A stretch of 64,000 nucleotides of DNA from Acetobacterium woodii DSM 1030 (GTDB taxonomy: Bacteria; Bacillota; Clostridia; Eubacteriales; Eubacteriaceae), in NCBI RefSeq assembly GCF_000247605.1, contig NC_016894.1, positions 1,849,732 through 1,913,731 on the forward strand. Direction: 5' to 3'. Shown here in pieces: positions 31,009-55,684 of this stretch. Every line of letters starts with the position of its first letter. The stretch's first letter is position 1. The translations under genes and the position numbers were made by a program. Under the pieces are notes generated by a model. It saw nothing but the letters and a program-made list of their open reading frames with translations. It did not search any database and was not told the DNA's origin.

Positions 31009-31061
31009 ATTGCAAAATGAGCCCAAAGCTCATGGCATATGGCACGTTCGCAATTGCCTAA
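31009..31061 (+). repeat. Short palindromic element in the 5' leader, flanked by 10-bp direct repeats
   Basis: An ATTGC...GCAAT outer pair and a perfect ATGAGC-CCAAA-GCTCAT inner hairpin, then GGCA and TTCGCAATTGCCTA. GATATAATTT occurs on both sides (30999-31008 and 31062-31071), as after an insertion. Related to the copies at 50947 and 55641. It ends 30 nt before the ATG of the next gene. Confidence 0.7.
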
Positions 31062-31090
31062 GATATAATTTTACGAATAAGGAGAAAATC

Positions 31091-32416
31091 ATGTTAGGTG
31101 CAATTATTGGGGACATTGTGGGTTCCCGTTTTGAGTTCAATAATCATCGGAGTAAAGCGTTTGACTTGTTCACAGATAATTGTCGAATCACCGATGATAC
31201 GATTATGACCTTGGCTGTAGCCAGCGCGATCATGGAAGCGGAAGAGCAGCTGGAATCAGCTGCCGAAATTGGCGATAATAATCGTGAGTATTACCGTTTG
31301 GTTGAGGTTCTAGCAGTGAAGACGATGCAGAATTTAGGTCGAAGTTATCCTAATTATGGGTATGGAGACAGGTTTGCACAGTGGCTTTCTAGTGATCAAC
31401 CCAAGCCATACAATAGTTTTGGAAATGGTGCTGCGATGCGGATTAGTCCGGCGGGCTTTGCTGCTAAGACAGAAACAGAAGCCCGGATATTGTCGGAAGT
31501 GATCACCCGGGTGAGCCATAATCATCCAGAAGGCCTTAAGGGCGCTGAAGCAACCGTGATGGCCATTTATATGGCCAGGAATGGCGCGGACAAACAAGCC
31601 ATTCGTGATCGGATTAATGGTTACTTTTATACGCTTGATTTTACCATTGATGGGATCAGAGATACCTACCGGTTTAATGAAACTTGTCAGGAAACAGTTC
31701 CCCAGGCAATAACTGCTTTTCTGGAGTCAACATCATTTGAGGATGCCATCCGAACGGCTATTTCGGTGGGTGGTGACAGCGACACTTTGGCAGCCATAAC
31801 CGGAGCTATTGCCGAAGCGTATTATGGAATCCCGGAAAACATTAAAGAAAAAGCGCTGACTTACCTGGATACCAATTTGCAGGCAATATATGAGGCCTGG
31901 CAGGAATTCAAAAAGAAGCGGTCAATGAATATAACTTTCAGACCGGCTAAGCTGCAGGAACGCGAAATTCTGTTTCGTGAAGGTTATCGGGAATGGCCTA
32001 AAAATAGAACGTTTGAAGAGTATTGTAGCGATAATGCCAAAGAAGACGAATACGGAATTCGGTATATTATGGCAATCGATGATGAAATTCTCAGCTCGGT
32101 TATTCTCTTGGAATTAAAATCAATCATGGGAAAAAAGGTTTATGGAATCGGTTCCGTATTAACACCTCAAAATCATACCGGGAAAGGTTATGCAACGACA
32201 TTACTACGTAAATGCCTCCAACAAATCGAAAACAATGATCCGTTGATTTTTTTATATTCGGATATCAATCCAGCTTTTTATCAAAGACTTAGTTTTAGAA
32301 TCTTACCTTTAGAATTTCAAAAAGTTAAAAAAAGCACTTGTATGGTGAGGTGTCGTGATGAAAATTGGGAGGCACTATTAAAAAGTTCAGTTGCGTTAAT
32401 TCCCGATTACTTTTAG
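31091..32416 (+). CDS. ADP-ribosylglycohydrolase fused to a GNAT acetyltransferase domain
   Basis: 441 residues from the ATG at 31091 with AAGGAG upstream; a longer open frame only translates the repeat element. Residues 1 to about 278 form an ADP-ribosylglycohydrolase/DraG-like domain with the metal-binding blocks GDIVGSRFEFNN, TDDTIMT and GGDSDTLAAITGAIAEAYYG. Residues 279-441, beginning with Met-Asn-Ile, form a GNAT-like domain (GSVLTPQNHTGKGYATTLLR as acetyl-CoA loop). There is no stop codon and no ribosome-binding site between them, so it is a genuine fusion in this sequence. It could remove ADP-ribose from proteins and acetylate a second site or substrate; no target is known. Confidence 0.85.
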   Translation: MLGAIIGDIVGSRFEFNNHRSKAFDLFTDNCRITDDTIMTLAVASAIMEAEEQLESAAEIGDNNREYYRLVEVLAVKTMQNLGRSYPNYGYGDRFAQWLSSDQPKPYNSFGNGAAMRISPAGFAAKTETEARILSEVITRVSHNHPEGLKGAEATVMAIYMARNGADKQAIRDRINGYFYTLDFTIDGIRDTYRFNETCQETVPQAITAFLESTSFEDAIRTAISVGGDSDTLAAITGAIAEAYYGIPENIKEKALTYLDTNLQAIYEAWQEFKKKRSMNITFRPAKLQEREILFREGYREWPKNRTFEEYCSDNAKEDEYGIRYIMAIDDEILSSVILLELKSIMGKKVYGIGSVLTPQNHTGKGYATTLLRKCLQQIENNDPLIFLYSDINPAFYQRLSFRILPLEFQKVKKSTCMVRCRDENWEALLKSSVALIPDYF

Positions 32417-32433
32417 TCAATGCGAGACAGGCT

Positions 32434-32461
32434 TTTACACGATCAAAGAATATGTTATAAT
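32434..32461 (+). promoter_or_regulatory. Promoter of the ABC-F gene
   Basis: TTTACA (32434-32439), 16-bp spacer, TATAAT (32456-32461), upstream of the leader hairpin. Confidence 0.6.
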
Positions 32462-32471
32462 TTAGAAATAA

Positions 32472-32501
32472 ATGTCATTAGTTATAAAAAACACTTCCTG
32501 A
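32472..32501 (+). CDS. Putative leader peptide of the ABC-F attenuator (MSLVIKNTS)
   Basis: Nine codons and a TGA, starting within a few bases of the expected transcript start, so translation would be near-leaderless. Codons 6-9 exactly cover the left arm of the terminator hairpin, so a ribosome stalled there would prevent the hairpin. That fits antibiotic-sensing leaders of ABC-F genes, but the short frame could be chance. Confidence 0.4.
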   Translation: MSLVIKNTS

Positions 32502-32529
32502 CAAACACTATTAATCTGGAAGTGTTTTT
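32487..32529 (+). terminator. Conditional terminator (attenuator) in the ABC-F leader
   Basis: AAAAACACTTCC (32487-32498) pairs perfectly over 12 bp with GGAAGTGTTTTT (32518-32529). Only 28 nt separate it from the ABC-F start codon, too little for a promoter, so transcription of the gene must pass through it. Confidence 0.75.
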
Positions 32530-32557
32530 AATTGAAAAAATAAGAAATGGAGAATGA

Positions 32558-34114
32558 ATGAGTATTTTAAATGTCGAGAATCTTTCTCACGGCTTTGGGG
32601 ATCGGGCGATTTACAAGCAGGTTTCCTTTCGCTTGTTAAAAGGTGAACATATCGGATTAATTGGTCCTAATGGAGAAGGTAAATCGACTTTCATGAATAT
32701 CGTAACCGGAAAGCTGATGCCTGATGAAGGCAAGGTGGAATGGTCAAAAAATGTCCGGGTTGGTTATCTGGATCAACATGCGATGTTGGCAAAAGGAATG
32801 ACTGTTCGGGATGTATTAACCTCGGCTTTTGATTTTTTGCTGGAGATGGAGAGTCGGATTGGCTTACTTTATGAAAAAATGGGTGAAGATACACCGGAAG
32901 AACTGGAAAAAGATTTAGAAGAAGTCGGCGATTTACAGGAATTATTAGATTTTCACGATTTCTATCTGGTCGATTCAAAAGTAGAAGAAATTGCCAAGGC
33001 ATTGGGACTAAACGAGATTGGCCTGGATAAAGATATTACTGAATTAAGTGGTGGTCAGCGGACCAAAGTTTTGCTGGGAAAACTATTACTCGAAAAACCG
33101 GATATTTTATTATTAGATGAACCAACAAATTATCTGGATGAACAACATATTGAGTGGTTAAAGCGTTATTTAAATGATTATGAAAATGCCTTTATTTTAA
33201 TTTCACATGATTTGCCATTTGTTAATGAAGTCATCAATATTATTTATCATATGGATAATCAGAAATTGACCCGTTATGTTGGCGACTATGAAAAATTTAA
33301 AGAAGTACTTGAAGCAAAAAAAGCCCAGGAGCAAGCGGCTTACAATCGCCAGCAAAATGAAATTGCCGATTTAAAAGATTTTGTTGCCAGAAATAAAGCC
33401 CGGGTAGCAACTCGAAATATGGCGATGTCGAGACAAAAAAAGCTGGATAAAATGGATATCATTGAGTTAGCATCCGAAAAACCCAAACCGCGATTTAATT
33501 TTAAGGAAGCTGGTTCAACCGGCCGGCGGGTTTTTGAAACTGAGGAGTTAGTGATTGGTTATCATGAACCTTTATCAAAACCCTTGAATTTAGTCATGGA
33601 ACGAAAGCAAAAAATCGTTTTAAAAGGGACAAATGGGATTGGAAAAACAACCTTGCTTAAAAGTATTCTGGGATTAATTCCCCCCCTTTCAGGCACGATT
33701 GAAAAAGGTGAAAAACTCGAAATTGGCTATTATGAACAGGAAATGGATCAAAATATCGGGACGAGCTGTATTGACGAAGTATGGAATGAGTTTCCCTCGC
33801 TTAATCAAAAAGAAGTTCGTTCGGCGCTGGCCCAATGCGGACTGACCCGGAAGCATATTGAGAGTATGGTTAAGGTGCTTAGCGGGGGAGAACAAGCCAA
33901 AGTGCGGTTATGTAAACTGATCAACCGCTCAAGTAATATATTGGTTCTTGATGAACCAACCAATCACTTGGATGCTGAAGCAAAAGCTGAATTGCAACGT
34001 GCCTTAGAAGCCTATGGCGGCGGTATTTTGATGGTTTGCCATGAACCCGAATTTTATGAAAGTTTTGTCAGTGAAGTTTGGGATTGTTCGCAATGGACGA
34101 CTAAAGTATTTTAA
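32558..34114 (+). CDS. ABC-F family ATPase (ribosome-associated translation factor, YkpA/YbiT-like)
   Basis: 518 residues, two ABC domains in tandem and no membrane segment. Walker A GPNGEGKST and GTNGIGKTT; signatures LSGGQRTKVLL and LSGGEQAKVRL; Walker B ILLLDEPTNYLD and ILVLDEPTNHLD. The linker between the domains (about 235-300) is charged and helical, as in ABC-F proteins that reach into the ribosomal E site. Some members protect ribosomes from antibiotics, others are housekeeping factors. The apparent attenuator in its leader would fit drug-induced expression. GGAGA site before the ATG. Confidence 0.92.
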   Translation: MSILNVENLSHGFGDRAIYKQVSFRLLKGEHIGLIGPNGEGKSTFMNIVTGKLMPDEGKVEWSKNVRVGYLDQHAMLAKGMTVRDVLTSAFDFLLEMESRIGLLYEKMGEDTPEELEKDLEEVGDLQELLDFHDFYLVDSKVEEIAKALGLNEIGLDKDITELSGGQRTKVLLGKLLLEKPDILLLDEPTNYLDEQHIEWLKRYLNDYENAFILISHDLPFVNEVINIIYHMDNQKLTRYVGDYEKFKEVLEAKKAQEQAAYNRQQNEIADLKDFVARNKARVATRNMAMSRQKKLDKMDIIELASEKPKPRFNFKEAGSTGRRVFETEELVIGYHEPLSKPLNLVMERKQKIVLKGTNGIGKTTLLKSILGLIPPLSGTIEKGEKLEIGYYEQEMDQNIGTSCIDEVWNEFPSLNQKEVRSALAQCGLTRKHIESMVKVLSGGEQAKVRLCKLINRSSNILVLDEPTNHLDAEAKAELQRALEAYGGGILMVCHEPEFYESFVSEVWDCSQWTTKVF

Positions 34115-34218
34115 CCCTAACTTTGGTTGGTTTAGCGGTGAAATCGGATAAGTTTAAAAGAGAAGGGAGTTAGTGTTGACTTGTGATCATATCATTCGCA
34201 AATTAATGCTAAAAATAA

Positions 34219-34965
34219 ATGATGATTACATATATTCATGAAACAGAATTACACAAAGGTATTGAAGCAGCGATGAAAGCTTTAAATAAGGCAGATATTG
34301 TTGCCGGTAAAAATCAGGATCGCGAAGATCAGTTAAAAGAAATTCATCTGCTGATGGATATTGATAATGTTCAGGAGATAAAAATTACGATGGCGATGCC
34401 AACCGGGGTGGAAACGCTTGTTGATTATGTCTTGGAAATTGTCGAAGGAACAAAAGATTTTGAAAAAGATTTGTATGGTTACACTTATCATGATTTATTT
34501 TCCAAAAACCTGGACTTTGTGATCAGTAAATTAAAAGAAGATCCGATAACCAGACAAGCGACGTTACATGTGGCAAATCAGGAAGCGGCAAAGTTGGACC
34601 ACCCACCATGTCTACAACTGATTCATTACACGATTAAAGACGGTAAACTGAATACCGATGTGGTTTTTCGGAGCAATGATGGCGTAAAAGCGGTGGCGAT
34701 GAATGTTTTTGCTTTGCTTGAATTGTCGCGATACATCGCCAAAAAGGTTGGCATCAACGAACTGGGTTCCTATTCGCATCATGCCTTGAGTTTCCATGCC
34801 TATAGCAGAGATTGGAAAGCTCTTGAGGGATATTGTAAAATGTTTGATGAGCGAGATTGTATTATTGACTATGAAGATTATTTGGAAGCTTATGCGGATT
34901 ACGCTGATGACTGTCGAGAAAAAAGCAAACAATTACAAATCAAACAGGAAAGCAAGCTAAAATAA
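34219..34965 (+). CDS. Thymidylate-synthase-like protein
   Basis: 248 residues. The C-terminal half reads like the thymidylate synthase core: PPCLQLIHY with the catalytic-type Cys131, VVFRSNDGVKAVAMNVFALL with RSND and the conserved Asn, and a late SFHAYSRDW where synthases have a H-x-Y motif. The His that follows the catalytic Cys in most synthases is Leu here, and the N-terminal half shows no typical folate/dUMP loop. It may be a divergent nucleotide-modifying enzyme of the TS/dCMP-hydroxymethylase fold or a non-catalytic relative. No good ribosome-binding site is visible; an in-frame stop lies just before the first ATG. Confidence 0.6.
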   Translation: MMITYIHETELHKGIEAAMKALNKADIVAGKNQDREDQLKEIHLLMDIDNVQEIKITMAMPTGVETLVDYVLEIVEGTKDFEKDLYGYTYHDLFSKNLDFVISKLKEDPITRQATLHVANQEAAKLDHPPCLQLIHYTIKDGKLNTDVVFRSNDGVKAVAMNVFALLELSRYIAKKVGINELGSYSHHALSFHAYSRDWKALEGYCKMFDERDCIIDYEDYLEAYADYADDCREKSKQLQIKQESKLK

Positions 34966-34980
34966 TCAGAAAATGAAGAA

Positions 34981-35030
34981 TTGACAGAATCTAAAAAAAG
35001 TGCTAGTCTTTACCTAGGAATCCTAAGTAA
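34981..35030 (+). promoter_or_regulatory. Promoter and dyad operator of the PadR/HAAS operon
   Basis: TTGACA (34981-34986), 17-bp spacer, TAGTCT (35004-35009). The near-perfect dyad TTACCTAGG-AAT-CCTAAGTAA (35010-35030) sits between the promoter and the GGAGG site, a likely autoregulatory PadR site. Confidence 0.7.
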
Positions 35031-35041
35031 GGAGGCAAATA

Positions 35042-35365
35042 ATGCAAAATCAGGAATTATTAAAAGGTAGTGCCCAAATTCTGATCTTGAAAATGCTTGA
35101 AAATGAACCAATGTATGGGTATCAAATGATTAAAAATATGGAAGAACGATCGCAGCACACCTTTCATTGGAAAGAAGGGAGCTTGTATCCAATTCTTTAT
35201 AGTATGGAAAAAAAAGAATTAATTCTGGCTTATTGGGAAGAAAAACCACGTAAACGAAAATACTATCAGATCACTTCAAAAGGTAAAAAAGAACTGCTCA
35301 AACTTGAGGATGACTGGCGAATCTTCAGCCGGTCGATGAATCATTTGTTGGGCGGTGCGTTATGA
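35042..35365 (+). CDS. Short PadR family transcriptional regulator
   Basis: 107 residues, the short PadR-like type (winged helix only): LKMLENEPMYGYQMIKNMEE, HWKEGSLYPILYSMEKK, then the wing KRKYYQITSKGKKEL. It overlaps the next gene by four bases (ATGA), the common PadR/HAAS arrangement in Firmicutes. These repressors usually control their own membrane-protein operon in response to envelope stress or antibiotics. GGAGG site. Confidence 0.92.
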   Translation: MQNQELLKGSAQILILKMLENEPMYGYQMIKNMEERSQHTFHWKEGSLYPILYSMEKKELILAYWEEKPRKRKYYQITSKGKKELLKLEDDWRIFSRSMNHLLGGAL

Positions 35366-36219
35366 AAAATAGTTATGATACTTATGTTGAGACGGTACTT
35401 CAATCGGTGTTGGACGAAAAAAGACATCAGGAAATAAAAGATGAATTAATGGATCATTTGCAGTCCCGCGAAGAAGAACTGAGCGAAGATGAGCTTGATC
35501 CATCAGAAATTGAATTTCAGGTGCTGCAGGATATGGGATCACCGGAAGAACTGGGAAAAAACTTGAACCGGATTTATGGCATGAATCAAAAACCATTATG
35601 GGCGATCGGAATTAGTTCATCTTTATTGGCAGTTTTTAATGGTTATCTGATGATCCACGCGGGGATGTCAAACCTAAGCCAAGTTGTGATGGTGGCGCTT
35701 GGTTTAATCGTGAACTTAATGTGCATTTATGTGGTTGTAAAAACGAAAAAAAATTTGGACAAGGTCCGGGAAGAACGAATTTATTTTTCAGGGGATATTA
35801 AAACATATATTAAAAAATTGACAGATAAAATTTTGATCAGAGGGTTTTGTTTCCTGGTTGTCTTGATGATTGTTCTCGGTCTATTTGATTATTTTATGGA
35901 TGATTTTGAAAATAATTTATTAATAATAGGCTTTTTTTACGCTAGTTATTTATTTTTTTCCATTTTAAACAGTTATTATCCTAAAATGATTTTTTCTGAA
36001 ACTGGCGTTTATATTATGCATGATCTGCCAACGTTTAAGAGCTGGGAAGAAGTTGAGGGGTATGAGTGGCAACAAAAATTAAGCAATTATCAACTGCGTT
36101 TAAAAAACAAAAGATGGTTTAGTAAGATCCATATCGGATTTAATTCGAAAGAAAAAGATTTAGTAGATGACTTTTATAAAAAACATCAAAAATCTGAACA
36201 TCCTAAAACGCTCCAGTAA
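35362..36219 (+). CDS. HAAS-domain (DUF1700/DUF1129-like) membrane protein
   Basis: 285 residues. The N-terminal HAAS signalling helix pair is at about 1-70 (VLQSVLDEKRHQEIKDELMD, LQDMGSPEELGKNLNRIYG), followed by four hydrophobic segments at about 80-100, 105-125, 165-185 and 190-210. The cytoplasmic tail includes YEWQQKLSNYQLRLKNKRW, a PH-like pattern seen in YcxB/DUF5673 proteins. It is translationally coupled to the PadR gene and presumably works with it as a sensor or effector; the biochemical role is unknown. Confidence 0.8.
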   Translation: MKNSYDTYVETVLQSVLDEKRHQEIKDELMDHLQSREEELSEDELDPSEIEFQVLQDMGSPEELGKNLNRIYGMNQKPLWAIGISSSLLAVFNGYLMIHAGMSNLSQVVMVALGLIVNLMCIYVVVKTKKNLDKVREERIYFSGDIKTYIKKLTDKILIRGFCFLVVLMIVLGLFDYFMDDFENNLLIIGFFYASYLFFSILNSYYPKMIFSETGVYIMHDLPTFKSWEEVEGYEWQQKLSNYQLRLKNKRWFSKIHIGFNSKEKDLVDDFYKKHQKSEHPKTLQ

Positions 36220-36255
36220 TGATTAATGTGGGAATAATATTGTTTTTTAATTATT

Positions 36256-37011
36256 TTGTCAAGATTGAATTTGGGGGTGACGGAGATTAAAGAATTTTTT
36301 ATTAAAAAGCTTGCTCTAAGCAGTACCTTGGGACTCGATGAATATTTGCTTGAGTTGCCTGTTGTAAAGGCTTTGGCACGAGGTGCAACGATTGATTTTC
36401 AACAATCGGTGACTTTTTTAGTCGGTGAAAATGGGACCGGAAAATCAACTTTAATGGAAGCTTTGGCCATTGCGCTGGGTTTCAATGAAGAAGGCGGATC
36501 AAAAAACTTTCGTTTTTCAGCAGCTGCGACTGTGTCTAATTTATCGGACCAATTGGTGGTTTCAAAATTTATCTTACCAGATGATGGCTTCTTTTTGCGG
36601 GCTGAAAGTTTTTATAATTTGGCGACGAAGGTTGATGAATTAGGTGTTAGTGGATATGGCAATCGGTCCCTGCATAATCAGTCTCATGGCGAAAGCTTCT
36701 TAACACTGGTTGAAGAGCGTTTTCGTGGAAATGGGCTTTATCTGTTGGATGAACCGGAAGCAGCATTGTCACCGATGCGAATTTTATCATTAATGGTACA
36801 GCTTGATCGCTTAGTGAAAGCAAAATCCCAGGTGATCATTGCAACCCATTCGCCAATTCTGATGACTTATCCCGGGGCAACCATTTATTCCCTGGATTAT
36901 GATGGAATAAAGAAGGTAAATTATCAAGAAACAGAGCATTTTAAACTGACTAAAGAATTTCTTAATGAGCCGTCACGGATGCTACATTACTTATTAGACG
37001 ATCCAGAATGA
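36256..37011 (+). CDS. AAA/ABC-type ATPase (predicted ATPase, COG3910-like)
   Basis: Up to 251 residues. Walker A FLVGENGTGKSTLMEALAIA; a signature-like region HNQSHGESFLTLVEERF; Walker B GLYLLDEPEAALSPMRILS; H-loop IIATHSPILM. These are stand-alone SMC/Rad50-like ATPases without coiled coil, role unclear, sometimes linked to phage defence or DNA transactions. The start is uncertain: TTG codons at 36256 and 36265 and a GTG at 36277 are in frame, none with a well-spaced Shine-Dalgarno site. Confidence 0.8.
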   Translation: MSRLNLGVTEIKEFFIKKLALSSTLGLDEYLLELPVVKALARGATIDFQQSVTFLVGENGTGKSTLMEALAIALGFNEEGGSKNFRFSAAATVSNLSDQLVVSKFILPDDGFFLRAESFYNLATKVDELGVSGYGNRSLHNQSHGESFLTLVEERFRGNGLYLLDEPEAALSPMRILSLMVQLDRLVKAKSQVIIATHSPILMTYPGATIYSLDYDGIKKVNYQETEHFKLTKEFLNEPSRMLHYLLDDPE

Positions 37012-37065
37012 AACGATAATTAAGGTGCAGGATTAAATTTAAAGATCAATAAACGAGGTGAAAAA

Positions 37066-37527
37066 ATGAAAAAAAGATGGTTTGCAGTGGTTTGTATTGC
37101 TTTGTTATTATTTTGTATTACAGGATGTGATCAACTAACGGAAGCGAAAAATAAGGCAGAAGATTTATATGCCTCAAAGGTTGAGCTGATCGGGGATAAT
37201 TCGGCTGTTTCGCATTTAATTGAAAAAATTGGGTTGGGAAATATCACCAATTACACCATTGAATTAAAAACTGAAAAAGAGCCATATGGTTTAATCATCA
37301 ACGTTAAAGAAATGGACGGATCGTTTGCTGAAAATGATTTCTCAGCAACTGCAGTGGAATTGCTCGGTCTGATTAAAAATCTCGATTATGTGGAGATTAC
37401 CAATGGTCAGGATTCTTACAAGTTAACCGAAGCAGAAGCATCGGCGATGATTAATGAAAATGTCAAAACGTTGGGTGAGTCACAAGAAAAATTAAAAACG
37501 GTTATTGATCAATTAACAAATAAGTAA
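37066..37527 (+). CDS. Small lipoprotein of unknown function
   Basis: 153 residues. Lipoprotein signal peptide: KKR, a hydrophobic run to residue 19 and a lipobox-like ITGC with Cys21 as the lipidated residue. The rest is an alpha/beta domain (NITNYTIELKTEKEPYGLII, LGLIKNLDYVEITNGQDSY) of a kind seen as DUF4825-like in Clostridia. AGGTGA site before the ATG. The product would be exposed on the outer face of the membrane. No neighbour explains its role. Confidence 0.8.
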   Translation: MKKRWFAVVCIALLLFCITGCDQLTEAKNKAEDLYASKVELIGDNSAVSHLIEKIGLGNITNYTIELKTEKEPYGLIINVKEMDGSFAENDFSATAVELLGLIKNLDYVEITNGQDSYKLTEAEASAMINENVKTLGESQEKLKTVIDQLTNK

Positions 37528-37565
37528 ACCAGTGGGAACAAAAAAATCGATTTAGAAAGTAGGCA

Positions 37566-37835
37566 ATGATGCTAAAACAAGATTATCTTCAAGCCCAAAT
37601 TGTTATGAAACAGGCTCAAATTGATTTAGAGAATATTTTTAATACTACAAAACCAGAAAGTGCTGAAGATCAGGAGGCCCATAATAGTTTATTAAAGCTC
37701 ATTGATCAATTAAAGAGTATTGATGCTTATTACGATCATCTGAAAATCACAAAAATCGAAGCATTGTCTCCCAATGAAAAACTTTTTGTCAATCTCATCA
37801 AACTTAATAAAGAGCAAGTTAATCAGAAGTTCTGA
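37566..37835 (+). CDS. Hypothetical protein, 89 residues
   Basis: Small, helical, charged protein without cysteines or membrane segments. ATG at 37566 (a second Met follows at once) with an AAAGTAGG-type site a few bases upstream. It lies 39 nt behind the lipoprotein gene in the same orientation. I do not recognise the family; a helical-hairpin protein is likely from the regular leucine/isoleucine spacing. Confidence 0.6.
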   Translation: MMLKQDYLQAQIVMKQAQIDLENIFNTTKPESAEDQEAHNSLLKLIDQLKSIDAYYDHLKITKIEALSPNEKLFVNLIKLNKEQVNQKF

Positions 37836-37965
37836 TTGGCTCTGATGAGATAAGCAAACATGACTATTTAATTTAATCATAATGTTTAAATTAGGCGATT
37901 AATTAACGATTCGGTTGAGTTCGGAAAGACCGATAATGATCAATCAAATGGATTTAACGGAGTCG

Positions 37966-38559
37966 TTAATATTTAGAAAATTCGTTTTGAACACCATTGG
38001 TTGTAACGGCAATAAGCAGTTCTAAAAATTGTTCAGTCGGTAGATCTTTGCCATTTATGTACCACTTTGAAACGGTACTGAGGATCGCAGCACTTTGATA
38101 TTCCATTAAATATTTCACTTTTAGCAATTCTTCATGTGTTAGCTGTTGGTACATAGAAAGCACCGATGGCGTTAATTTTGTTAAGACTTTTAGTCTAAAA
38201 TTGGGGTCACCATTTTCACTTAATAAAACAGGCAGATAAGTTTTGTTTTTTTCAAAAAATTCAAGAATTGATTGTAAAACAAAACTTTTTTCTTGACGGT
38301 TAAAATAGTTACCATCAAAAACATTCTTAAGAATAATTTTTTCAAAATCTTCGATAGTAATAGTTTGTGTTTCAATATCATCTAAAATATCGTAAACATC
38401 TTTAAAATAAACATAAAAAGTTGAGCGATTGTAACCAGCCAGTTCACAAACTTCTTTTACAGTAATTTTTTCAATTCTTTTTTTACAATATAATTTCCAA
38501 AACGAATCAATTAAATTCTGCCGCGTAATTTGCGTGGTCGATGATAACGGTGTGTCCAT
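37966..38559 (-). CDS. TetR family regulator of the divergent ABC exporter
   Basis: 197 residues. N-terminal helix-turn-helix (RQNLIDSFWKLYCKKRIEKI, VKEVCELAGYNRSTFYVYF), then a TetR_C-type helical domain, of the group found beside YhgE or ABC exporters. GAGGT site before the ATG. It is divergent from the ABC ATPase/permease pair at 38720 with an 18-bp dyad between, so it probably represses that pair until a substrate drug is present. Confidence 0.87.
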   Translation of the reverse strand: MDTPLSSTTQITRQNLIDSFWKLYCKKRIEKITVKEVCELAGYNRSTFYVYFKDVYDILDDIETQTITIEDFEKIILKNVFDGNYFNRQEKSFVLQSILEFFEKNKTYLPVLLSENGDPNFRLKVLTKLTPSVLSMYQQLTHEELLKVKYLMEYQSAAILSTVSKWYINGKDLPTEQFLELLIAVTTNGVQNEFSKY

Positions 38560-48270: not shown

Positions 48271-49215
48271 TTAGCTGTCTGAACTTACTGAACCCAGACT
48301 GGCGAAGTTATTTGGTCGGGTAATGGAAGTACCAGTCATGGTAAATAAACCAGCGTTGTCATAAACATAAACGTGAACATCGTAATTGCTCAATTCATTG
48401 TTATGGTCACTATAAGGAATATAACAACTGGCAACATTACCTTCGACGGTTCCTTCATACCAGATGAGATCATCTTGGCCGTCTTTTTCTGTCCATGTCG
48501 GAAAGTAAACATGCCCAACGCCGCTTAAGTCGTCGGCAACCACGGCCGTAACGTGGAGTCCTTTACCTTCGTAATCAGTAACCAGGACATCAGATAGTGT
48601 TGGCGGTGTTGTATCCGAGGCCGCATCAATATAATCACCGATATAGATATAACCCTGAAAATCGCCAACTGAAGTGGCATCTTCATTTCCGATTGTATAG
48701 GTATAGTTTTGAAAGTAGATTCCACTATAAGTCGATTCTGAAAGGGTGACGGTGTCGCCATTGATGGCTTCGACGATTGCAACATGCCCGTCAGAACTGC
48801 CGCCCCAGCAGATTACGGCACCCAGTTTAGGTGTTGATCCATAGGGATAATAGCCATTGCTTAAATTATAATCCCACCAGGAATTAGCATTGCCTGAACA
48901 CAGATTTGGTTTTGTTCCTAATATTTCATAGGCCCGCCCCCAGGCGTAAGCGGTACAGTTTGGCATTCCATATCCGCCAAGAGCATAAACGTTATTGGCA
49001 TAAAAATAAGGATTATCAGAACTTGGTGCTGTCATTCGAGCTGAATACATATTGGGTAGCGATATCGCTGATTCCGCCTGAGCAGTCTCGACAGCTTGGG
49101 CAATATGGGTTATATCCACTGGTGCTGCTTCTGCCTTGACGACATTTTGTGTCATTCCGATCGAAAAAACAAAAGCAAGGCTGATACACGCGATTTTTAT
49201 TAAATCTTTTTTCAT
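48271..49215 (-). CDS. Secreted CHAP-domain protein (peptidoglycan amidase) with Bsp-like C-terminal domain
   Basis: 314 residues. The Sec signal peptide (MKKDLIKIACISLAFVFSIG) probably ends near VKAEAA. The CHAP amidase/endopeptidase domain is at about 70-195 with the nucleophile in MPNCTAYAWGRAYE, the His in GHVAIVEAI and the late TLSESTYSG block. The C-terminal domain (about 205-300, TPPTLSDVLVTDYEGKGLHV) resembles the GBS Bsp-like repeat. Likely an extracellular cell-wall hydrolase. The gene faces the diguanylate cyclase across a shared terminator. Confidence 0.87.
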   Translation of the reverse strand: MKKDLIKIACISLAFVFSIGMTQNVVKAEAAPVDITHIAQAVETAQAESAISLPNMYSARMTAPSSDNPYFYANNVYALGGYGMPNCTAYAWGRAYEILGTKPNLCSGNANSWWDYNLSNGYYPYGSTPKLGAVICWGGSSDGHVAIVEAINGDTVTLSESTYSGIYFQNYTYTIGNEDATSVGDFQGYIYIGDYIDAASDTTPPTLSDVLVTDYEGKGLHVTAVVADDLSGVGHVYFPTWTEKDGQDDLIWYEGTVEGNVASCYIPYSDHNNELSNYDVHVYVYDNAGLFTMTGTSITRPNNFASLGSVSSDS

Positions 49216-50020
49216 TTGACCTCCGTTATTTATTCAAAATAGCAGCTACAATATTGATAATAACGTTAATAGCTTACTATTTGTTGCAGCTTGTTTACAA
49301 GTTAGCAATACGAATAATACAATAAGTGCTAAAAATTGGCAAGCATGATGTTAAATGTATTTAAGAATGTCAAAATGGCGCTCAGTATTGAGTAGCGTAG
49401 AAATATTTAGAAATGGCATAATAAGTTAGAAAAACACCGCTGAGCAAAAGAAAATTGTATAAATCGGATGGAATGAACCATTTTGATGGGTTAATCTGAG
49501 TTTAAGTTAATGTGAATTAAGTTAATAATCGATGAAAGTAATAGATATTAATTCGTTATGATGACGTTTGCTTTTTCAATTAAGGCCATTAATTTATCAA
49601 TCAATGTTTTTGAAAAAAACATATCTAAAGAAAAGTTGTTTATAACGCTAATATAAATGACTAATAAAGATAATTAGGTGTATCAATATGTATTAAAATT
49701 GATTAAAAATAAAATTATAAATTTAGTAGACTGACGGGTACAAGCGATTGATTTGTCTTAAAAGCTAATTTGAAATGTATTTATCAGAATTGGATGAAGG
49801 ATAAAATCAGAAATATTTGCGAAAAAAATCATATGAAGCTATAATTGAATAGAATCTCAAAAAAGCGATTGAGTAATCTGTAAAGAATGTTTTTACAAGC
49901 GAATCAGTGATCAAGGACTTCACGTGGGATAGAATTAAGGGTATAATACTTAAATTAAGAGGCGAAGCGGATAAGAACGAGACGGACTTAGCTAAATTGG
50001 TTGAAAACGAAAGGAATTGA
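49216..50020. other. Long AT-rich intergenic region upstream of rsmA
   Basis: About 800 nt with no credible open frame. The only recognisable signal is near the right end: TTCACG (49919-49924), 17-bp spacer, TATAAT (49942-49947), a plausible rsmA promoter. The usual neighbours of rsmA (tatD, rnmV) are missing, so an old rearrangement or a decayed gene is possible, but no remnant was recognised. Confidence 0.4.
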
Positions 50021-50911
50021 ATGAATAAACTAACATCACCTCGAGTCATTGAAACACTATTAAAGAAATATGATCTTCATTTCAATAAACGATTTGGTCA
50101 AAATTTCCTCACTGATGAGAATATTGTCCAAAAAATAGTCAGAGCTGCGGATATTGGCGAAGCAGATCTGGTATTGGAAATCGGTCCTGGGATCGGGACT
50201 ATGACCCAAGCGCTCAGCGAATCTGCCGGTAAAATAGTCACGGTCGAAATTGATAAAAAATTGATACCGGTTCTTCACGAGACCCTAAATGATTGTGATA
50301 ACGTTACAATTGTTCAAGGCGATATTCTGAAAACAAATGTCAAAGAAATATTGGGGGAAGACTTGTTAACCATGCCCCTTAAAATTGTGGCAAATTTACC
50401 TTATTACATTACCACGCCGATTATTATGGGGTTTTTGGAATCAGATTTGCCAATTGAAAGCATGACTTTTTTAATCCAAAAAGAGGTTGGGGAGCGTTTA
50501 TGCGGAGTTCCAAGTACGAAGTCATATGGTTCACTGAGTATTGTCGCTCAATTTTATGCAGATATTTCCATTGATTTCGAGGTCCCGGCCCATGTATTTA
50601 TGCCTAAACCCAAGGTTGATTCAATCGTTGTCACGTTAAAAAAATTGACAAAACCTAAAATCGTACTGGAAAATAAAGATTTGTTTTTAGCAGTTGTCAA
50701 AGCCAGTTTTTTGAATCGAAGAAAAACGTTGATTAATGGTCTGACAATGAATACCCCGTTTGATAAGGAAGTGTTATTAGAAGTTCTGGAGGCCTGCGAA
50801 ATATCACCTGGGATACGCGGTGAAGCCTTAACGGGAGCGGATTTTGGCAGAATCGCTAATGCGTTGAGTCAACGAGTCGATCAGAGCGTGAGATCGACCG
50901 ATAATTATTAA
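50021..50911 (+). CDS. rsmA: 16S rRNA dimethyladenosine transferase RsmA (KsgA)
   Basis: Dimethylates A1518 and A1519 in the 3'-terminal hairpin of 16S rRNA with S-adenosylmethionine, a late step of 30S assembly. 296 residues, normal length. N-terminal signature FNKRFGQNFLTDENIVQKIV; SAM motif I VLEIGPGIGTMTQAL; catalytic motif IV NLPYYITTPIIM; C-terminal SFLNRRKTLINGL. ATG after AAAGGAA. Its loss gives kasugamycin resistance in other bacteria. Confidence 0.97.
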   Translation: MNKLTSPRVIETLLKKYDLHFNKRFGQNFLTDENIVQKIVRAADIGEADLVLEIGPGIGTMTQALSESAGKIVTVEIDKKLIPVLHETLNDCDNVTIVQGDILKTNVKEILGEDLLTMPLKIVANLPYYITTPIIMGFLESDLPIESMTFLIQKEVGERLCGVPSTKSYGSLSIVAQFYADISIDFEVPAHVFMPKPKVDSIVVTLKKLTKPKIVLENKDLFLAVVKASFLNRRKTLINGLTMNTPFDKEVLLEVLEACEISPGIRGEALTGADFGRIANALSQRVDQSVRSTDNY

Positions 50912-50946
50912 ACGTTGGTAGATCCCAGGATTAGATTAAAAATATT

Positions 50947-50993
50947 TTGCGAGAAACTGGGCCCAAAGCTCATGGCATTTTCGCAATTACCTA
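50947..50993 (+). repeat. Short palindromic element in the 5' leader of the ABC operon
   Basis: The outer TTGCGA-AAA / TTTTCGCAA stem encloses GGGC-CCAAA-GCTC (with wobble) and ends CAATTACCTA. Imperfect direct repeats AAATATTTTG and AAATAATTTTG flank it. Related to 31009 and 55641. It ends 28 nt before the ATG at 51022. Confidence 0.65.
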
Positions 50994-51021
50994 AATAATT
51001 TTGTTGGTTAAGGAGAAAAAA

Positions 51022-51996
51022 ATGATTGAGATCAATGATGTTACTTTTAAATACTCAAATACCAAAGGGATTTTCAATTTGAATTTAAAAATTGAAAAAG
51101 GAGAGGTATTTGGTTATGTAGGCCCAAATGAGTCAGGAAAAACGACCACCATTCGAATGCTCATGGGATTTATCCGAGCTGGCAAAGGAAGTGCAAAAAT
51201 TGACGGATTAAACTGTTTTTTTAAAGCGGCGGCAATCCAGCGATATCTGGGTTATGTGCCGGAAGATATCACTCTTTTTGAAAATATGCGGGTAAAAGAA
51301 TACCTCAATTTTGTTAATCAAATGCGCGGGTCTTATAGTAGCCAGGAGACGCGACTGCGAGATGAATTAATTGAACGATTTGAAGTTGAAACGCGAGGGA
51401 AAATTGAATCACTGTCAACCGGGATGAAAAAAAGACTGGCGATTGTAGCGGCGTTAATGCATGATCCGCAAACATTGGTATTAGATGAACCGACCAGTGG
51501 TTTAGACCCGCTGATGCAGTCTCGATTGTTAGATCTTATTGTTGAAGAAAAACGTCGCGGAAAAACGGTTTTACTTTCAACGCATCGGTTTGAAGAAGTC
51601 GAACGAACTTGCGATCGGGTAGGGGTATTGAAAGAAGGACACCTCGTCGAAGATTTGGATATAGTTAGTCTTCGCGCCGAAGAAACGAAAGCATATTTGG
51701 TTAAATTTGCAGCGCCTCCCAATTTGGAACAAATAAAAAAATATGGTTTTGAATATCAACAGTTTTCACAGAGTGATTTTGAAATCTTTTCTTCCGGTGA
51801 TCGGATTGATGTATTAATGAAAGTGTTGTCGCATGAAAAAGTACTGGTATTCAATTCTAAAAATCAATCGCTCGAAGAAATCTTTCAAAAGCATTATCGG
51901 AAAGAAATAAATCATATCCCAACCAAAAAAGAAGCAATGAGTAATTTTTTAAACGGCAGAAAGAAAAAAACAGATAAGGAGATAAAAAAAATATGA
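51022..51996 (+). CDS. ABC transporter ATP-binding protein
   Basis: 324 residues from the ATG at 51022 with AAGGAG upstream; an in-frame TTG at 51001 lies before that site. Walker A GYVGPNESGKTTTIRM, signature SLSTGMKKRLAIV, Walker B LVLDEPTSGLDP, H-loop LLSTHRFEEV. The Walker A has Glu-Ser instead of the usual Gly-x-Gly (NESGKT). A C-terminal extension of about 100 residues follows, as in NatA/BcrA-type exporters. It overlaps the permease gene by four bases. Confidence 0.9.
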   Translation: MIEINDVTFKYSNTKGIFNLNLKIEKGEVFGYVGPNESGKTTTIRMLMGFIRAGKGSAKIDGLNCFFKAAAIQRYLGYVPEDITLFENMRVKEYLNFVNQMRGSYSSQETRLRDELIERFEVETRGKIESLSTGMKKRLAIVAALMHDPQTLVLDEPTSGLDPLMQSRLLDLIVEEKRRGKTVLLSTHRFEEVERTCDRVGVLKEGHLVEDLDIVSLRAEETKAYLVKFAAPPNLEQIKKYGFEYQQFSQSDFEIFSSGDRIDVLMKVLSHEKVLVFNSKNQSLEEIFQKHYRKEINHIPTKKEAMSNFLNGRKKKTDKEIKKI

Positions 51997-52793
51997 GTAT
52001 TCCATTATTTTTGAAGAATATTAAAAATAATACCCTATTGTTGCTTGTTTTTATGGGATTGATGTCAATTTATCTTGCTGTTATAATTTATATGTACAAC
52101 CCTAATGGGATTGGCGCATTCGTCGATATGTTATCCATTTTACCAGTTACTTTGGTAAACGCAATGGGCTTTGCGACAATCGACAGTGGTCTGACAGGAT
52201 TTGTTGCGAGTATGTTTTATGGTTTTCTGATTTATCTTTTTCCGATGGTTTATTGCATTATTTTGGCCAATCGGCTGGTTGCGAAAATGGTGTATGAAGG
52301 AACGATGATCAATATATTAGGGACACCAAACAGTCGGGTTAAAATTATCATTACTCAAGGGGTCTATTTGCTGAGCTCCATCGCGGTTTTATTTGCAGTA
52401 TTGTTTCTGGTGGGATATGGAATGAGCGAGCAATTTTTTCCGGGGTTGCTTGATGTGAAAATATTTATGAAACTGAATCTTGGAGCTTGTTTGATGACGA
52501 TGACCATTGGTATGTTTTGTTTTTTCTTTTCCTGTTTATTTAATAGTACTAAACCATCACTTTTTTTTGGCGCAATGATTCCGATTATTTTCTTTATTTT
52601 TAATACTTTAAGCAAATTATCGGAAAAGACTGTTTTTTTAGGCAAATTCTCGCTTTACAATGTTTTTGACGGGCTTGCCATTGTTAATGGGGAAAGCAGT
52701 ATCATGTTAGTGAGTGGCGGATTTATTTTTTTCATTTTATTTTTATTTTTAGTATCGGTTGGCGTGTTTAGTTTGAAACGTTTGCCGGCATAA
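51993..52793 (+). CDS. ABC-2 type transporter permease
   Basis: 266 residues with six hydrophobic segments (first at about 14-34, last at about 240-260) and a PNSRVKIIITQGVYLL-type cytoplasmic loop between TM2 and TM3, as in ABC-2 permeases. Start overlaps the ATPase stop (ATGA), so the pair is translationally coupled and forms one exporter. The substrate is unknown; the family includes bacitracin- and sodium-export proteins. Confidence 0.83.
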   Translation: MSIPLFLKNIKNNTLLLLVFMGLMSIYLAVIIYMYNPNGIGAFVDMLSILPVTLVNAMGFATIDSGLTGFVASMFYGFLIYLFPMVYCIILANRLVAKMVYEGTMINILGTPNSRVKIIITQGVYLLSSIAVLFAVLFLVGYGMSEQFFPGLLDVKIFMKLNLGACLMTMTIGMFCFFFSCLFNSTKPSLFFGAMIPIIFFIFNTLSKLSEKTVFLGKFSLYNVFDGLAIVNGESSIMLVSGGFIFFILFLFLVSVGVFSLKRLPA

Positions 52794-52820
52794 CTCGTTT
52801 AATGGCATGTTTATCGGATA

Positions 52821-52863
52821 AAAAAAGCCAGCACGGTTACCAAAAATTGTGCTGGCTTTTTTT
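52821..52863. terminator. Bidirectional terminator
   Basis: AAAAAAGCCAGCAC and GTGCTGGCTTTTTT form a long perfect stem around a 14-nt loop, between the convergent ABC permease and FAH genes. Confidence 0.92.
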
Positions 52864-52865
52864 AT

Positions 52866-53759
52866 TTATTCGATCGTATTTCTTAGGATTCCAATTTTTT
52901 CAATTTCAGCTTCGATCACATCACCATGTTTTAAAAATTGGGGTGGATCTAGCGCAAATCCAACTCCGGCGGGCGTTCCAGTCAAAATAATGTCGCCCGG
53001 TAGAAGGGTCATGCCCTGAGATAAGTCGGCGATAATGGCAGGAATGTCAAAAATCATCCGGCTAGTATGGGAATGTTGCCGTTCCTCGCCGTTAACCCGG
53101 CAGGTAATTGCAAGGTCAAAGGGAAGCCTTAAATCATTTTTATGGAGGATTCGGGGTCCAAGCGGACAAAAAGTATCAAGACTTTTACCTTTATACCATT
53201 GTGAATGCTTTTTTTGCAGATCTCTAGCCGTGATATCATTGGCGATTGTATAGCCGAAAATATAATCTTCAGCATTTTCTTTAGCAATATCAGTGCCCTC
53301 TTTTCCGATTATAATAGCCAGTTCAGCTTCATAGTCAATTTGTTTCGTCGCTTTGGCATGAGATAAAATAACCGTATCGGGGCCGGTAATCGAAGTTGGC
53401 AGTTTGGAGAAATAAATCGGGTTTTCGGGAATATTACCCATTGACGGAATATTTTTTATTTCTTGGGCATGATCAGCATAGTTTTTTCCCAGACAGAAAA
53501 CATTTCTTGGTGGCTTGGGAATTGGCGCCAACAGTTTAACTAAATTTAAATGAATGCCTAAATTTGAATGTTCGGTCATGACTTTTTTGATCGCTAATAA
53601 AAGATCATCAGTGGCCATGGGGATAAAGTCGATCAGACGTTCGGGAAATTTTAGACCCATCAGTTTTCCAATCGTAGTGATCGGTAAAACTTTATTTTCA
53701 TCGGCGGTCAGAATGCCACCTTCACTAAAGGCGTTATATTGATAGGTTACAAAATACAT
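52866..53759 (-). CDS. Fumarylacetoacetate hydrolase family protein
   Basis: 297 residues from the ATG at 53759 (MYFVTYQYNAFSEGG), which has GAGGA 8 nt upstream; the longer open frame starts inside the leader. Metal and catalytic blocks: NVFCLGKNYADHAQEI, DYEAELAIIIGKEG, GYTIANDITARDLQ and ILTGTPAGVGFALDPP. The family includes acylpyruvases, oxaloacetate tautomerases and 2-hydroxyhepta-2,4-diene-dioate isomerases. In an organism handling aromatics, ring-cleavage chemistry is not expected, so oxaloacetate tautomerase or acylpyruvase activity is a fair guess. Confidence 0.88.
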   Translation of the reverse strand: MYFVTYQYNAFSEGGILTADENKVLPITTIGKLMGLKFPERLIDFIPMATDDLLLAIKKVMTEHSNLGIHLNLVKLLAPIPKPPRNVFCLGKNYADHAQEIKNIPSMGNIPENPIYFSKLPTSITGPDTVILSHAKATKQIDYEAELAIIIGKEGTDIAKENAEDYIFGYTIANDITARDLQKKHSQWYKGKSLDTFCPLGPRILHKNDLRLPFDLAITCRVNGEERQHSHTSRMIFDIPAIIADLSQGMTLLPGDIILTGTPAGVGFALDPPQFLKHGDVIEAEIEKIGILRNTIE

Positions 53760-54014
53760 ATAAAATTCCTCGCTTTTTTCTCTTATCATACCATTTTATA
53801 AGACGTAATTCCAGCTAAATTGAAGAACAACAATGTAAGTACAAAAACTTAATGGACATTTTAATGATGGGTTGTAATCTGTCCGGGTAAATTATTTTTG
53901 TGAACGTTTCGATTAGAAATTAGGAAAGGGACGAAATCATCATGATGGATAAATTACTTTTGGAAAAAAACAAAATAATATCTTAAGATAACGGTTTCTT
54001 TTAAGCGAAGAGCA

Positions 54015-54043
54015 TTGACAATTTTCACTAATTAAATTATGAT
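54015..54043 (+). promoter_or_regulatory. Promoter of the pyr operon
   Basis: TTGACA (54015-54020), 17-bp spacer, TATGAT (54038-54043). The transcript would start near 54050, giving a leader of about 165 nt before pyrB. Confidence 0.7.
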
Positions 54044-54056
54044 TACTTTAATTAAG

Positions 54057-54168
54057 TATGCAGGCTTTTGTAAGCGAGGCATAAACGTGCAAAAGAAACG
54101 ATACATTTTATGAAGGATAATGCCTGTTAGAAAGTATGCCGCTATTTTTATAAAGCGGCTTGTTTTTT
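54057..54168 (+). promoter_or_regulatory. Attenuator-like leader of the pyr operon
   Basis: First hairpin TATGC-aGGCTT-ttgt-AAGC-gag-GCATA (54057-54083). The terminator is GCCGCT (54138-54143) with AGCGGC (54154-54159), then TTGTTTTTT. GGCATA of the first hairpin (54078-54083) could instead pair with TATGCC (54135-54140) at the base of the terminator, so the two folds exclude each other. I see no convincing PyrR-binding loop (consensus around CNGNGAGG), so the sensor is uncertain. Confidence 0.6.
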
Positions 54169-54169
54169 G

Positions 54170-54197
54170 CCCATAATTGTATTCCCATAATTGTATT
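54170..54197 (+). repeat. Tandem 14-bp duplication upstream of pyrB
   Basis: CCCATAATTGTATT occurs twice in direct succession between the leader terminator and the pyrB ribosome-binding site. Confidence 0.85.
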
Positions 54198-54215
54198 TAT
54201 GATAGGAGAAACTAT

Positions 54216-55142
54216 ATGTTAAAAGGAAGACATTTAATCGAGCCTGGAGACTTTGAATTGGATGAAATTGAATCGATTATGCAGCTGGCTGATAATATTA
54301 TTGCAGACCCGGAGGGTTATTCTTTGGTTTGTAAGGGAAAATTATTGGCCAGCCTTTTTTATGAGCCCTCCACCCGGACTCGATTCAGTTTTGAAGCGGC
54401 GATGCTTCGTTTAGGCGGCGAAATCATTGGATTTGACGATCCTAATAATTCATCAGTTTCAAAAGGCGAAAGTTTAGGCGATACCATCCGCACCATTGAA
54501 TGTTATTCAGATATTGCAGTGATCAGACATCCGCGCGAAGGAACCGCCCGGCTGGTTTCTAAATTTGCTAACGAAATGCCGATTATTAATGCCGGAGACG
54601 GCGGACACGAACATCCAACTCAAACGTTAACTGATTTGTTGACAATTAGAAAATATAAAGGGAGTTGTGACAATCATGTGGTTGGCGTTTGCGGCGATTT
54701 ACTTTTCGGCCGAACGATTCATTCGTTAGTCAAAACGCTGAATCGCTACCAAGGGGTAAAATTTGTGTTTATCTCACCTCAGGAACTTAAAATGCCGGCA
54801 CATATTTTGCATCAACTGGATTCCCAAAATTATCAGGAAACAACCAGCTTGGACGAGGTCATTGGTGATTTGGATATCCTTTATATGTCTCGGGTTCAAC
54901 GAGAACGGTTTGTGAGTGAAGAAGAGTACTTACGACTGAAAAATTATTATATACTTGATCGAAAAAAGATGAAGGGTGCCAAAGAAGACATGATTGTAAT
55001 GCATCCCCTCCCGCGCGTGAATGAAATCGCCACTGAAGTGGATGAAGACCCAAGAGCCGTTTACTTTAATCAGGCAAAATATGGAATGTATGTCAGAATG
55101 GCACTGATTGCCAAACTTTTGGGAGTGGAGGATAAAAAATGA
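54216..55142 (+). CDS. pyrB: Aspartate carbamoyltransferase catalytic subunit
   Basis: Condenses carbamoyl phosphate with aspartate, the first committed pyrimidine step. 308 residues from the ATG at 54216, with AGGAG upstream. Carbamoyl-phosphate loop [43 protein letters not shown]. It overlaps pyrI by four bases, so catalytic and regulatory chains are made together. Confidence 0.97.
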
Positions 55143-55573
55143 TTAATGTATCAAAACTGAAAAAAGGGATTATCATCGATCATATTGAAGCTGGTCACGG
55201 TTTTGAAATTTATAAAGAACTGCATCTCAATGACATTGATGATGTGGTGGTGTTGCTAAAAAACATTCCCAGTAAAAAAATGAAGCAAAAAGATTTAATT
55301 AAAATTGAAACAGACATGCAGATTGATATGACCGTATTGGGTCTGATCGATCCCAACGTCACCATTAACTTTGTCAAAAATGGCGAATTATGTAAAAAAA
55401 TAAGTTTAACTTTGCCGACAGTTGTGAACGGGATTATGACATGCAAAAATCCTCGTTGTATTACCCAATATGAAGATGTCAAAGAGATAAAATTTTATCT
55501 GGTAAATGAAGAAAAAAAGCAATATCGATGTGAATATTGTGATGCTTATACAACCTTTATTGAAGAAACGTAA
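55139..55573 (+). CDS. pyrI: Aspartate carbamoyltransferase regulatory subunit
   Basis: 144 residues. An N-terminal allosteric nucleotide domain ([20 protein letters not shown]) and a C-terminal zinc domain with four cysteines in CKNPRCI and YRCEYCD. It binds CTP/ATP and gives feedback control of PyrB, as in the E. coli-type holoenzyme. Start codon overlaps the end of pyrB. Confidence 0.96.
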
Positions 55574-55640
55574 AAAAGGCTGAAGCGGTCGCCCGGATGA
55601 TTGCGTTTAGCCTGTCCGCCTACAGTTAGAAACTGTTTTG

Positions 55641-55684
55641 TGCGAAACTGAACCCAAAGTTCACGGCACTTTCGCAATTACCTA
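55641..55684 (+). repeat. Short palindromic element between pyrI and pyrC
   Basis: TGCGAAA and TTTCGCA form the outer stem and TGAAC-CCAAA-GTTCA the inner one; the end is CAATTACCTA. Compared with the copies at 31009 (TGAGC/GCTCA) and 50947 (TGGGC/GCTCA), the inner stem differs on both sides, so that pairing is kept. It ends 25 nt before the pyrC start. The DNA between pyrI and it (55574-55640) can also fold, but no terminator T run follows. Confidence 0.7.

What the first reader, a model, noticed from the sequence alone, without database searches (positions are those of the whole stretch)
31009..55684. Family of hairpin elements placed just before ribosome-binding sites, with compensatory changes
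Copies at 31009-31061, 50947-50993 and 55641-55684 share CCCAAAG in the loop and a CGCAATTACCTA-like end. The inner stem reads TGAGC/GCTCA, TGGGC/GCTCA and TGAAC/GTTCA, so both sides change while pairing is kept. All three end 25-30 nt before a start codon, in the same orientation as the gene. The first has 10-bp flanking direct repeats. They look like mobile elements that became, or behave as, translation-leader RNA structures.
Basis: partly seen in the sequence, partly recalled or inferred. Interest (0 to 1): 0.8.

Follow-up and report, generated by a model that had tools for sequence, protein, structure and literature searches.

The report
Transposons that target Shine-Dalgarno boxes
The three hairpins are remnants of a small transposon that has spread through this bacterium by inserting about 15 bases in front of ribosome-binding sequences, and larger transposons with the same kind of ends do likewise in other Firmicutes.

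Summary
The hairpins are real but are not shown to be a leader-RNA family. They are a minimal copy and two right-end fragments of a 171-bp MITE with a 15-bp terminal repeat (TAGGYRWTTGCGAAA) and target duplications of about 10-13 bp. The genome (Acetobacterium, probably A. woodii) holds 139 right ends, control 0. The window has a fourth, full-length copy at 21924-22094. An IS with the same ends and a DUF772/IS1182-like transposase is the likely source; its only full-length copy here is frameshifted.

The position before genes is target specificity. 94 of 101 two-ended copies have an AGGAGG-like box (>=4/6) 13-19 nt from one edge, 71 of 101 at >=5/6, against 24% and 4% of intergenic positions. 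The box, not the start codon, is the anchor. Related IS copies have it on the left at >=5/6 in 29 of 33, on the right in 0 of 29; more distant ones on the left in 10 of 10 delimited. Two IS copies lie inside reading frames at internal GGAGG.

The compensatory-change claim fails: 3 double changes in 1066 cells; slid controls 1-9. My paper searches found no report of SD-targeted transposition.

The parts
21924..22094 (-).
   Evidence: 91% identity to the reference copy over 164 positions
22110..22115 (+). SD-like box AGGAGT, 15 nt beyond the element's left edge; GTG at 22121 opens a frame of 191 codons
30999..31008 (.). Target-site duplication, left copy (GATATAATTT)
31009..31060 (+). Minimal (about 52 bp) MITE copy, right end intact
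31062..31071 (.). Target-site duplication, right copy (GATATAATTT)
31080..31084 (+). SD box AGGAG of the next gene (looks like an ADP-ribosylglycohydrolase; name recalled, no search made); ATG at 31091
50939..50993 (+). Right-end fragment of the MITE (reference positions 117-171), left part lost
51011..51015 (+). SD box AGGAG of the next gene (looks like an ABC-transporter ATPase; name recalled); ATG at 51022
55612..55684 (+). Right-half fragment of the MITE (reference positions 97-171), left half lost
55700..55705 (+). SD box AGGAGG of the next gene (looks like dihydroorotase, pyrC; name recalled); ATG at 55710

Best explanation
The hairpins are pieces of a MITE mobilised in trans by the DDE transposase of a DUF772/IS1182-like insertion sequence with the same ends. 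The transposition complex chooses targets by a purine box equivalent to the Shine-Dalgarno sequence (GGAGG type) and joins the element about 15 nt upstream of it, duplicating about 10-13 AT-rich bases and leaving a few bases between duplication and box. Because most such boxes in these AT-rich genomes are SD sequences (assumed, not counted), nearly every insertion falls just upstream of an SD, so SD, start codon and coding sequence survive: a safe-harbour strategy. Full IS copies insert with the left end towards the box, so the transposase gene points away from the host gene; the MITE, whose two ends are alike, inserts either way. Shown from sequence: family, ends, duplications, fixed spacing, orientation rule, spread, sites without the element. 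Inferred: that this transposase moves the MITE, that it reads the box directly as DNA, that end asymmetry sets orientation, that the elements are transcribed in leaders, and that safe insertion is the benefit.
For: 139 right ends in the genome, control 0; 275 terminal repeats at <=1 mismatch, control 12; duplications in 35 of 46 exact copies. IS with the same TIRs, 1677 bp, duplication GAACACCAGT, at G000:C1:1106821-1108497; DUF772 49.6 bits. Box at 13-19 nt: >=4/6 in 94 of 101 two-ended MITEs (intergenic null 24.1%), >=5/6 in 71 of 101 (4.0%), 6/6 in 19 of 101 (0.5%); same place on the opposite strand 15, 4 and 0 of 101. Correlation of edge-to-box with box-to-start 0.002 (n 65, boxes >=5/6); standard deviation of edge-to-box 1.07 against edge-to-start 1.95 nt; with boxes >=4/6, n 82, 1.45 against 2.12. 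Replication in six other same-genus genomes: >=4/6 in 39 of 40 copies, >=5/6 in 26, start and ORF in 37. IS copies: left side >=4/6 in 32 of 33, >=5/6 in 29 of 33; right side 5 and 0 of 29. More distant IS: 10 of 10 delimited copies >=5/6 on the left. Two IS insertions at internal GGAGG in frames open for 396 and 291 codons across the site; one MITE beside what looks by eye like an intrinsic terminator whose stem begins AAGGAG. Orthologous sites with the SD and without the MITE: 17 of 17 same-genus loci at the pyrC-like gene (14 with nothing inserted, 3 with another repeat), 13 of 14 examined at the ABC gene.
Against: The box is degenerate: 7 of 101 MITEs have nothing >=4/6 at 13-19 nt, and >=4/6 alone occurs by chance at 24%. 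L098, L127 and one of the two L001 copies have no convincing box (L127 and that L001 copy show no duplication); L191 is the one IS exception among 33. My spacing figures come from a box searched only 11-20 nt from the edge, which limits the spread that can be seen, and the purine-only positions come from copies selected for a box. The two intragenic IS cases have the box on the sense strand, so they do not by themselves separate DNA reading from a mechanism using transcript or ribosome. MITEs whose left end begins TAGGCG, as the IS left end does, face the box with the right end in 11 of 16 cases, so the terminal bases alone do not set orientation. The only full-length IS in this genome is frameshifted. 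The structural match of the transposase to Tn5 and piggyBac is weak (TM about 0.33-0.35, five matches at E <= 0.001; model pLDDT 74). No transposition was observed.
Confidence: 0.88

Rival explanations
1. Random insertion followed by selection: elements land anywhere but survive only in the harmless gap upstream of the SD.
For: In 82 of 101 two-ended copies a start codon with an ORF of at least 40 codons follows the box; leader insertions should be mild.
Against: Survival does not fix spacing at about 15 nt with a spread of 1-1.5 nt; random intergenic positions give 4.0% at >=5/6 against 71 of 101 observed; two IS copies inside reading frames still sit at GGAGG; IS orientation is one-sided.
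Confidence: 0.04
2. One reading: structured leader RNAs of mobile origin kept because they regulate translation of the next gene.
For: Copies adjoin SDs; predicted SD openness in 71 full-length copies is higher with the element than in a reconstructed empty leader (mean 0.54 against 0.40, p 3e-5; more open by >0.2 in 25, less in 4).
Against: No covariation beyond controls, either orientation, absent at two orthologous genes in nearly all relatives examined. The openness comparison assumes that the whole upstream stretch is transcribed, and 60 nt of downstream sequence alone gives 0.59.
Confidence: 0.06
3. The complex finds translation-initiation or promoter context (transcript, ribosome or RNA polymerase) rather than the DNA box.
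For: Most boxes look like genuine SDs of genes; both intragenic boxes are on the sense strand.
Against: Box-to-start distance is independent of edge-to-box distance; intragenic and terminator-side boxes are used; the L024 copy has a weak GAAAGG on the antisense strand of a coding end; copies occur at genes that look operon-internal, such as the pyrC-like one.
Confidence: 0.1

Closest known systems
IS1182 family, including IS1272
   Same: Transposase with DUF772; the NCBIfam IS1182 model matches (43.8 bits) below its cut-off of 270; terminal inverted repeats
   Different: IS1272 is reported to target inverted repeats and replace them (PMC5678879, passages); here a purine SD box lies outside a duplication of about 10-13 bp
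TnGBS / ISLre2 / some ISKra4 (Mutator-like transposases)
   Same: Fixed offset of 15-17 bp to an expression signal, oriented insertion attributed to unequal ends, signals on both sides where the ends are almost perfectly complementary (PMC3942029, passages)
   Different: They target upstream of the -35 of sigma-A promoters and use Mutator-like transposases; here the signal is the SD box and the transposase is DUF772/IS1182-like
Bacterial MITEs near genes (for example Correia)
   Same: Short, palindromic, non-autonomous, many copies; Correia lies mostly just upstream of genes (PMC10969869, passages)
   Different: That review has no occurrence of 'Shine' or 'ribosome binding' in its main text; here the spacing to the SD is fixed

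Membership tests
MITE (non-autonomous derivative of an IS) | Short, terminal inverted repeats, target duplications, no transposase gene, ends shared with an autonomous IS | tested here: met
   171 bp, 15-bp TIR, duplications in 35 of 46 exact copies; same ends on a 1677-bp IS
IS1182 family (NCBIfam NF033551) | Transposase reaches the curated equivalog cut-off | tested here: not met
   43.8 and 37.3 bits against 270 for two pieces; an IS5 model also matched below its cut-off, 20.8 against 140: a relative, not a member by that rule
IS1182 family (NCBIfam NF033551) | DUF772 domain and DDE catalytic core | tested here: met
   PF05598 49.6 bits, cut-off 23.1, in the full-length piece; none in the C-terminal piece; D149, D290 and E428 invariant in 14 sequences (their catalytic role is inferred); weak Tn5/piggyBac match of the model
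IS1272-type palindrome targeting | Target is an inverted repeat replaced on insertion | tested here: not met
   Targets are AT-rich stretches that are duplicated; no palindrome search of the targets was run
Structured cis-regulatory RNA | Match to a known Rfam family | tested here: not met
   No match at gathering score in the window
Structured cis-regulatory RNA | Compensatory base-pair changes beyond controls | tested here: not met
   3 of 1066 cells; slid controls 1-9
TnGBS/ISLre2 promoter-targeting elements | Mutator-type transposase | tested here: not met
   Pfam scan at E <= 0.001 returned only DUF772

The most novel reading that the evidence does not exclude
A transposition system that finds its target through the translation machinery: the transposase or its complex is guided by the ribosome, by 16S rRNA anti-SD pairing, or by the nascent transcript at SD sequences, not by reading the DNA box.
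Probability: 0.06. Interest if true: 0.95.

Novelty: new variant of a known kind. Interest (0 to 1): 0.78.

Why it matters
Few bacterial transposons are known to aim at gene-expression signals (my knowledge; TnGBS/ISLre2 is one case). An IS lineage that uses the Shine-Dalgarno box as its address would explain how a MITE can reach about 139 copies in one genome while largely sparing coding sequence. It would offer a natural system for putting DNA into 5' leaders, and it makes a clean biochemical question testable: how a DDE complex reads GGAGG at a fixed distance. It also warns against annotating such insertions as leader RNAs from position and hairpin alone.

Tried and rejected
Known RNA family: the Rfam scan of the window gave nothing at gathering score. 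Leader-RNA covariation: rejected. Leader peptide inside the hairpin: considered by eye only. A -10 box as target: some duplications contain TATAAT, but apparently operon-internal and intragenic copies speak against it; not tested formally. A GGAGG homing site is mentioned in PMC4227781 (passages), but for a group I intron, not for this kind of IS.

Rows dropped. Two-ended counts: 101 of 120 distinct right ends; the other 19 had no recognised left end. The 120 were found at <=5 mismatches in the stretches I had fetched, the 139 were counted at <=3 mismatches in the whole genome; I did not reconcile the two lists. Covariation: 8 of 120 rows failed an alignment rule. IS: of 50 loci, 33 were counted; 17 were left out (5 duplicates L188, L194-L197; tandem copies L171, L182; Ns L204; no motif L219; unclear ends L220, which scored 3/6; no usable left flank L193, L201, L208, L214-L216, L218). 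Distant IS: of 30 loci (seven pairs) were examined and 10 had a definable left end; the pairs L273/L290 and L275/L291 had none; the other 16 were not examined. Replication: the 40 copies were picked by me from a capped list, and four pairs of loci, perhaps five, are the same insertion in sister species. ABC locus: L240-L253 were examined, the weaker matches L254-L268 were not. Two plasmid copies were fetched but not analysed.
Full report
What is there. The three sequences are as described, but each is only the right end, or a shortened copy, of something larger. The window lies in one contig of 4,044,777 bases. This is the size of the Acetobacterium woodii DSM 1030 chromosome as I recall it; that the genus is Acetobacterium is supported by IS copies in same-genus genomes whose flanks are identical to those on contigs named A. 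fimetarium and A. wieringae. In this genome the strict pattern occurs 46 times and a looser right-end pattern 139 times, control 0. Reading outwards shows a 171-bp element bounded by TAGGYRWTTGCGAAA and its inverse, with direct repeats at the boundary in 35 of the 46 exact copies. It is a long imperfect palindrome. Three copies have an inverted interior by eye (L013, L032, L046), and some are only about 50-70 bp long. The window holds a fourth, full-length copy at 21924-22094.

Source. Loci with apparently unpaired terminal repeats gave a 1677-bp IS with the same ends and the duplication GAACACCAGT. Its protein has DUF772 and resembles IS1182 transposases below the curated cut-off. In this genome the only full-length copy matches the family model in two overlapping pieces in different frames, that is, it is frameshifted; the second copy is truncated. 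Frames of 485-486 codons were read in four sister genomes, and one genome, G013, has ten copies. The MITE itself is found at E <= 1e-4 in the own genome and in 16 of 18 same-genus genomes, and in 0 of 21 genomes of other genera of the family; G013, with ten IS copies, has no MITE by this search. That this transposase moves the MITE is inferred from the shared ends.

Position. I read 120 distinct right ends, 101 with both ends. GGAGG read outwards from the element lies at 14-17 nt in 24 right and 15 left flanks of 101; on the opposite strand it occurs 4 times in 80 nt of right flanks and 0 times in left flanks. An AGGAGG match of at least 4/6 at 13-19 nt on either side occurs in 94 of 101, at least 5/6 in 71, and 6/6 in 19. 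Control windows further out average 27.6, 3.4 and 0.2 of 101; the same place on the opposite strand gives 15, 4 and 0. 22,695 intergenic positions sampled from the same loci give 24.1%, 4.0% and 0.5%. In 82 of 101 a start codon with an ORF of at least 40 codons follows; in 13 there is a box of at least 4/6 but no such start under my rule; in 6 the chosen side scored below 4/6. With boxes of at least 5/6 and a start (n 65), the distance from edge to box is independent of that from box to start (correlation 0.002) and tighter than that to the start codon (1.07 against 1.95 nt); with boxes of at least 4/6 (n 82) the figures are 1.45 and 2.12. The box is therefore the anchor, with the caution that it was searched only 11-20 nt from the edge.

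Replication. Forty copies from six other same-genus genomes (G010, G018, G016, G017, G003, G001), picked from a capped list and including at least four pairs of shared insertions, give at least 4/6 in 39, at least 5/6 in 26, 6/6 in 7, and a start with ORF in 37 of 40. IS copies from named contigs of Clostridia, Halanaerobium and others and from same-genus genomes were delimited by their ends: of 33 distinct copies the left, transposase-5' side has a box of 4/6 or better in 32, 5/6 or better in 29 and 6/6 in 16; the right side has 4/6 in 5 and 5/6 in 0 of 29; control windows on the left flank give 27%, 4.3% and 0.2%. A survey of 398 genomes of the phylum, the own one included, found relatives at E <= 1e-40 in 18; ten copies from five genomes could be delimited on the left and all ten have a box of at least 5/6 at 14-18 nt. 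The Halanaerobium relatives delimited here are 48-49% identical to the query.

Motif or gene start. Two IS copies in G013 lie in frames that stay open across the site for 396 and 291 codons within the stretch examined, each at an internal GGAGG. One MITE stands beside what looks like an intrinsic terminator whose stem begins with AAGGAG, and several stand at boxes without a recognised gene. These cases favour a sequence motif over gene position and speak against survival as the cause. Both intragenic boxes are on the sense strand, so guidance by ribosome or transcript is not strictly excluded.

Mobility. At the pyrC-like gene none of 17 same-genus loci has the MITE in the 230 bases shown: 14 have nothing inserted and 3 (L222, L224, L225) have another palindromic repeat, whose relation to this MITE I did not test. 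At the ABC-transporter gene 13 of 14 loci examined lack the MITE and one (L253, G003) has its own degraded copy before the same SD. Some other insertions are shared by sister species, so copies differ in age.

RNA reading. The hairpin folds, and its pairs are kept in 92% of cells, but 82 distinct right ends show only 3 double changes in 1066 pair cells against 1-9 in slid structures. In 71 full-length copies the SD is predicted somewhat more open with the element than in a reconstructed empty leader (mean 0.54 against 0.40), with 0.59 for the downstream sequence alone. The element thus does not seem to hide the SD; whether it matters in the cell is unknown.

Comparison. IS1272 of the IS1182 family is reported to target and replace inverted repeats (PMC5678879, passages). 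TnGBS and ISLre2 insert 15-17 bp upstream of sigma-A promoters in an orientation attributed to unequal ends, and relatives with nearly equal ends show promoters on both sides (PMC3942029, passages). The same logic fits here: the IS inserts in one orientation, the MITE in both. One observation does not fit simply: MITEs whose left end begins like the IS left end still face the box mostly with the right end (11 of 16), so deeper end sequence must matter if the idea is right. I found no report of SD targeting in paper searches (listings; one search returned nothing), nor in passages of PMC10969869, PMC4227781, PMC12056078 and PMC9208149. The library is open-access only, and ISfinder could not be searched.

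Verdict. An ordinary-looking MITE with an unusual address. The finding as given is explained; the targeting rule is the interesting result.

Noticed in passing
window 24080-24102 and 24316-24347: Two decayed left-end pieces of the same MITE family, facing away from each other.
   Followed up: partly
L171, L182, L183 (G013:C1:1019124-1023833): Three IS copies in tandem, separated by the same short sequence TTTAATTTTAA.
   Followed up: no
L013, L032, L046: MITE copies whose interior looks inverted between intact ends, perhaps by recombination between the two arms.
   Followed up: no
L222, L224, L225 (upstream of the pyrC-like gene in G010, G018, G017): Another palindromic repeat, with different ends, stands upstream of the gene; its relation to this MITE was not tested.
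   Followed up: no
window 31010-31090 and 55638-55709: TTG-started reading frames run from inside the element into the host gene in frame; they could mislead start-codon annotation.
   Followed up: no
L308/L321, L304/L317, L323/L329, L324/L330: MITE insertions with the same flanks in two sister species, so some copies are old.
   Followed up: no
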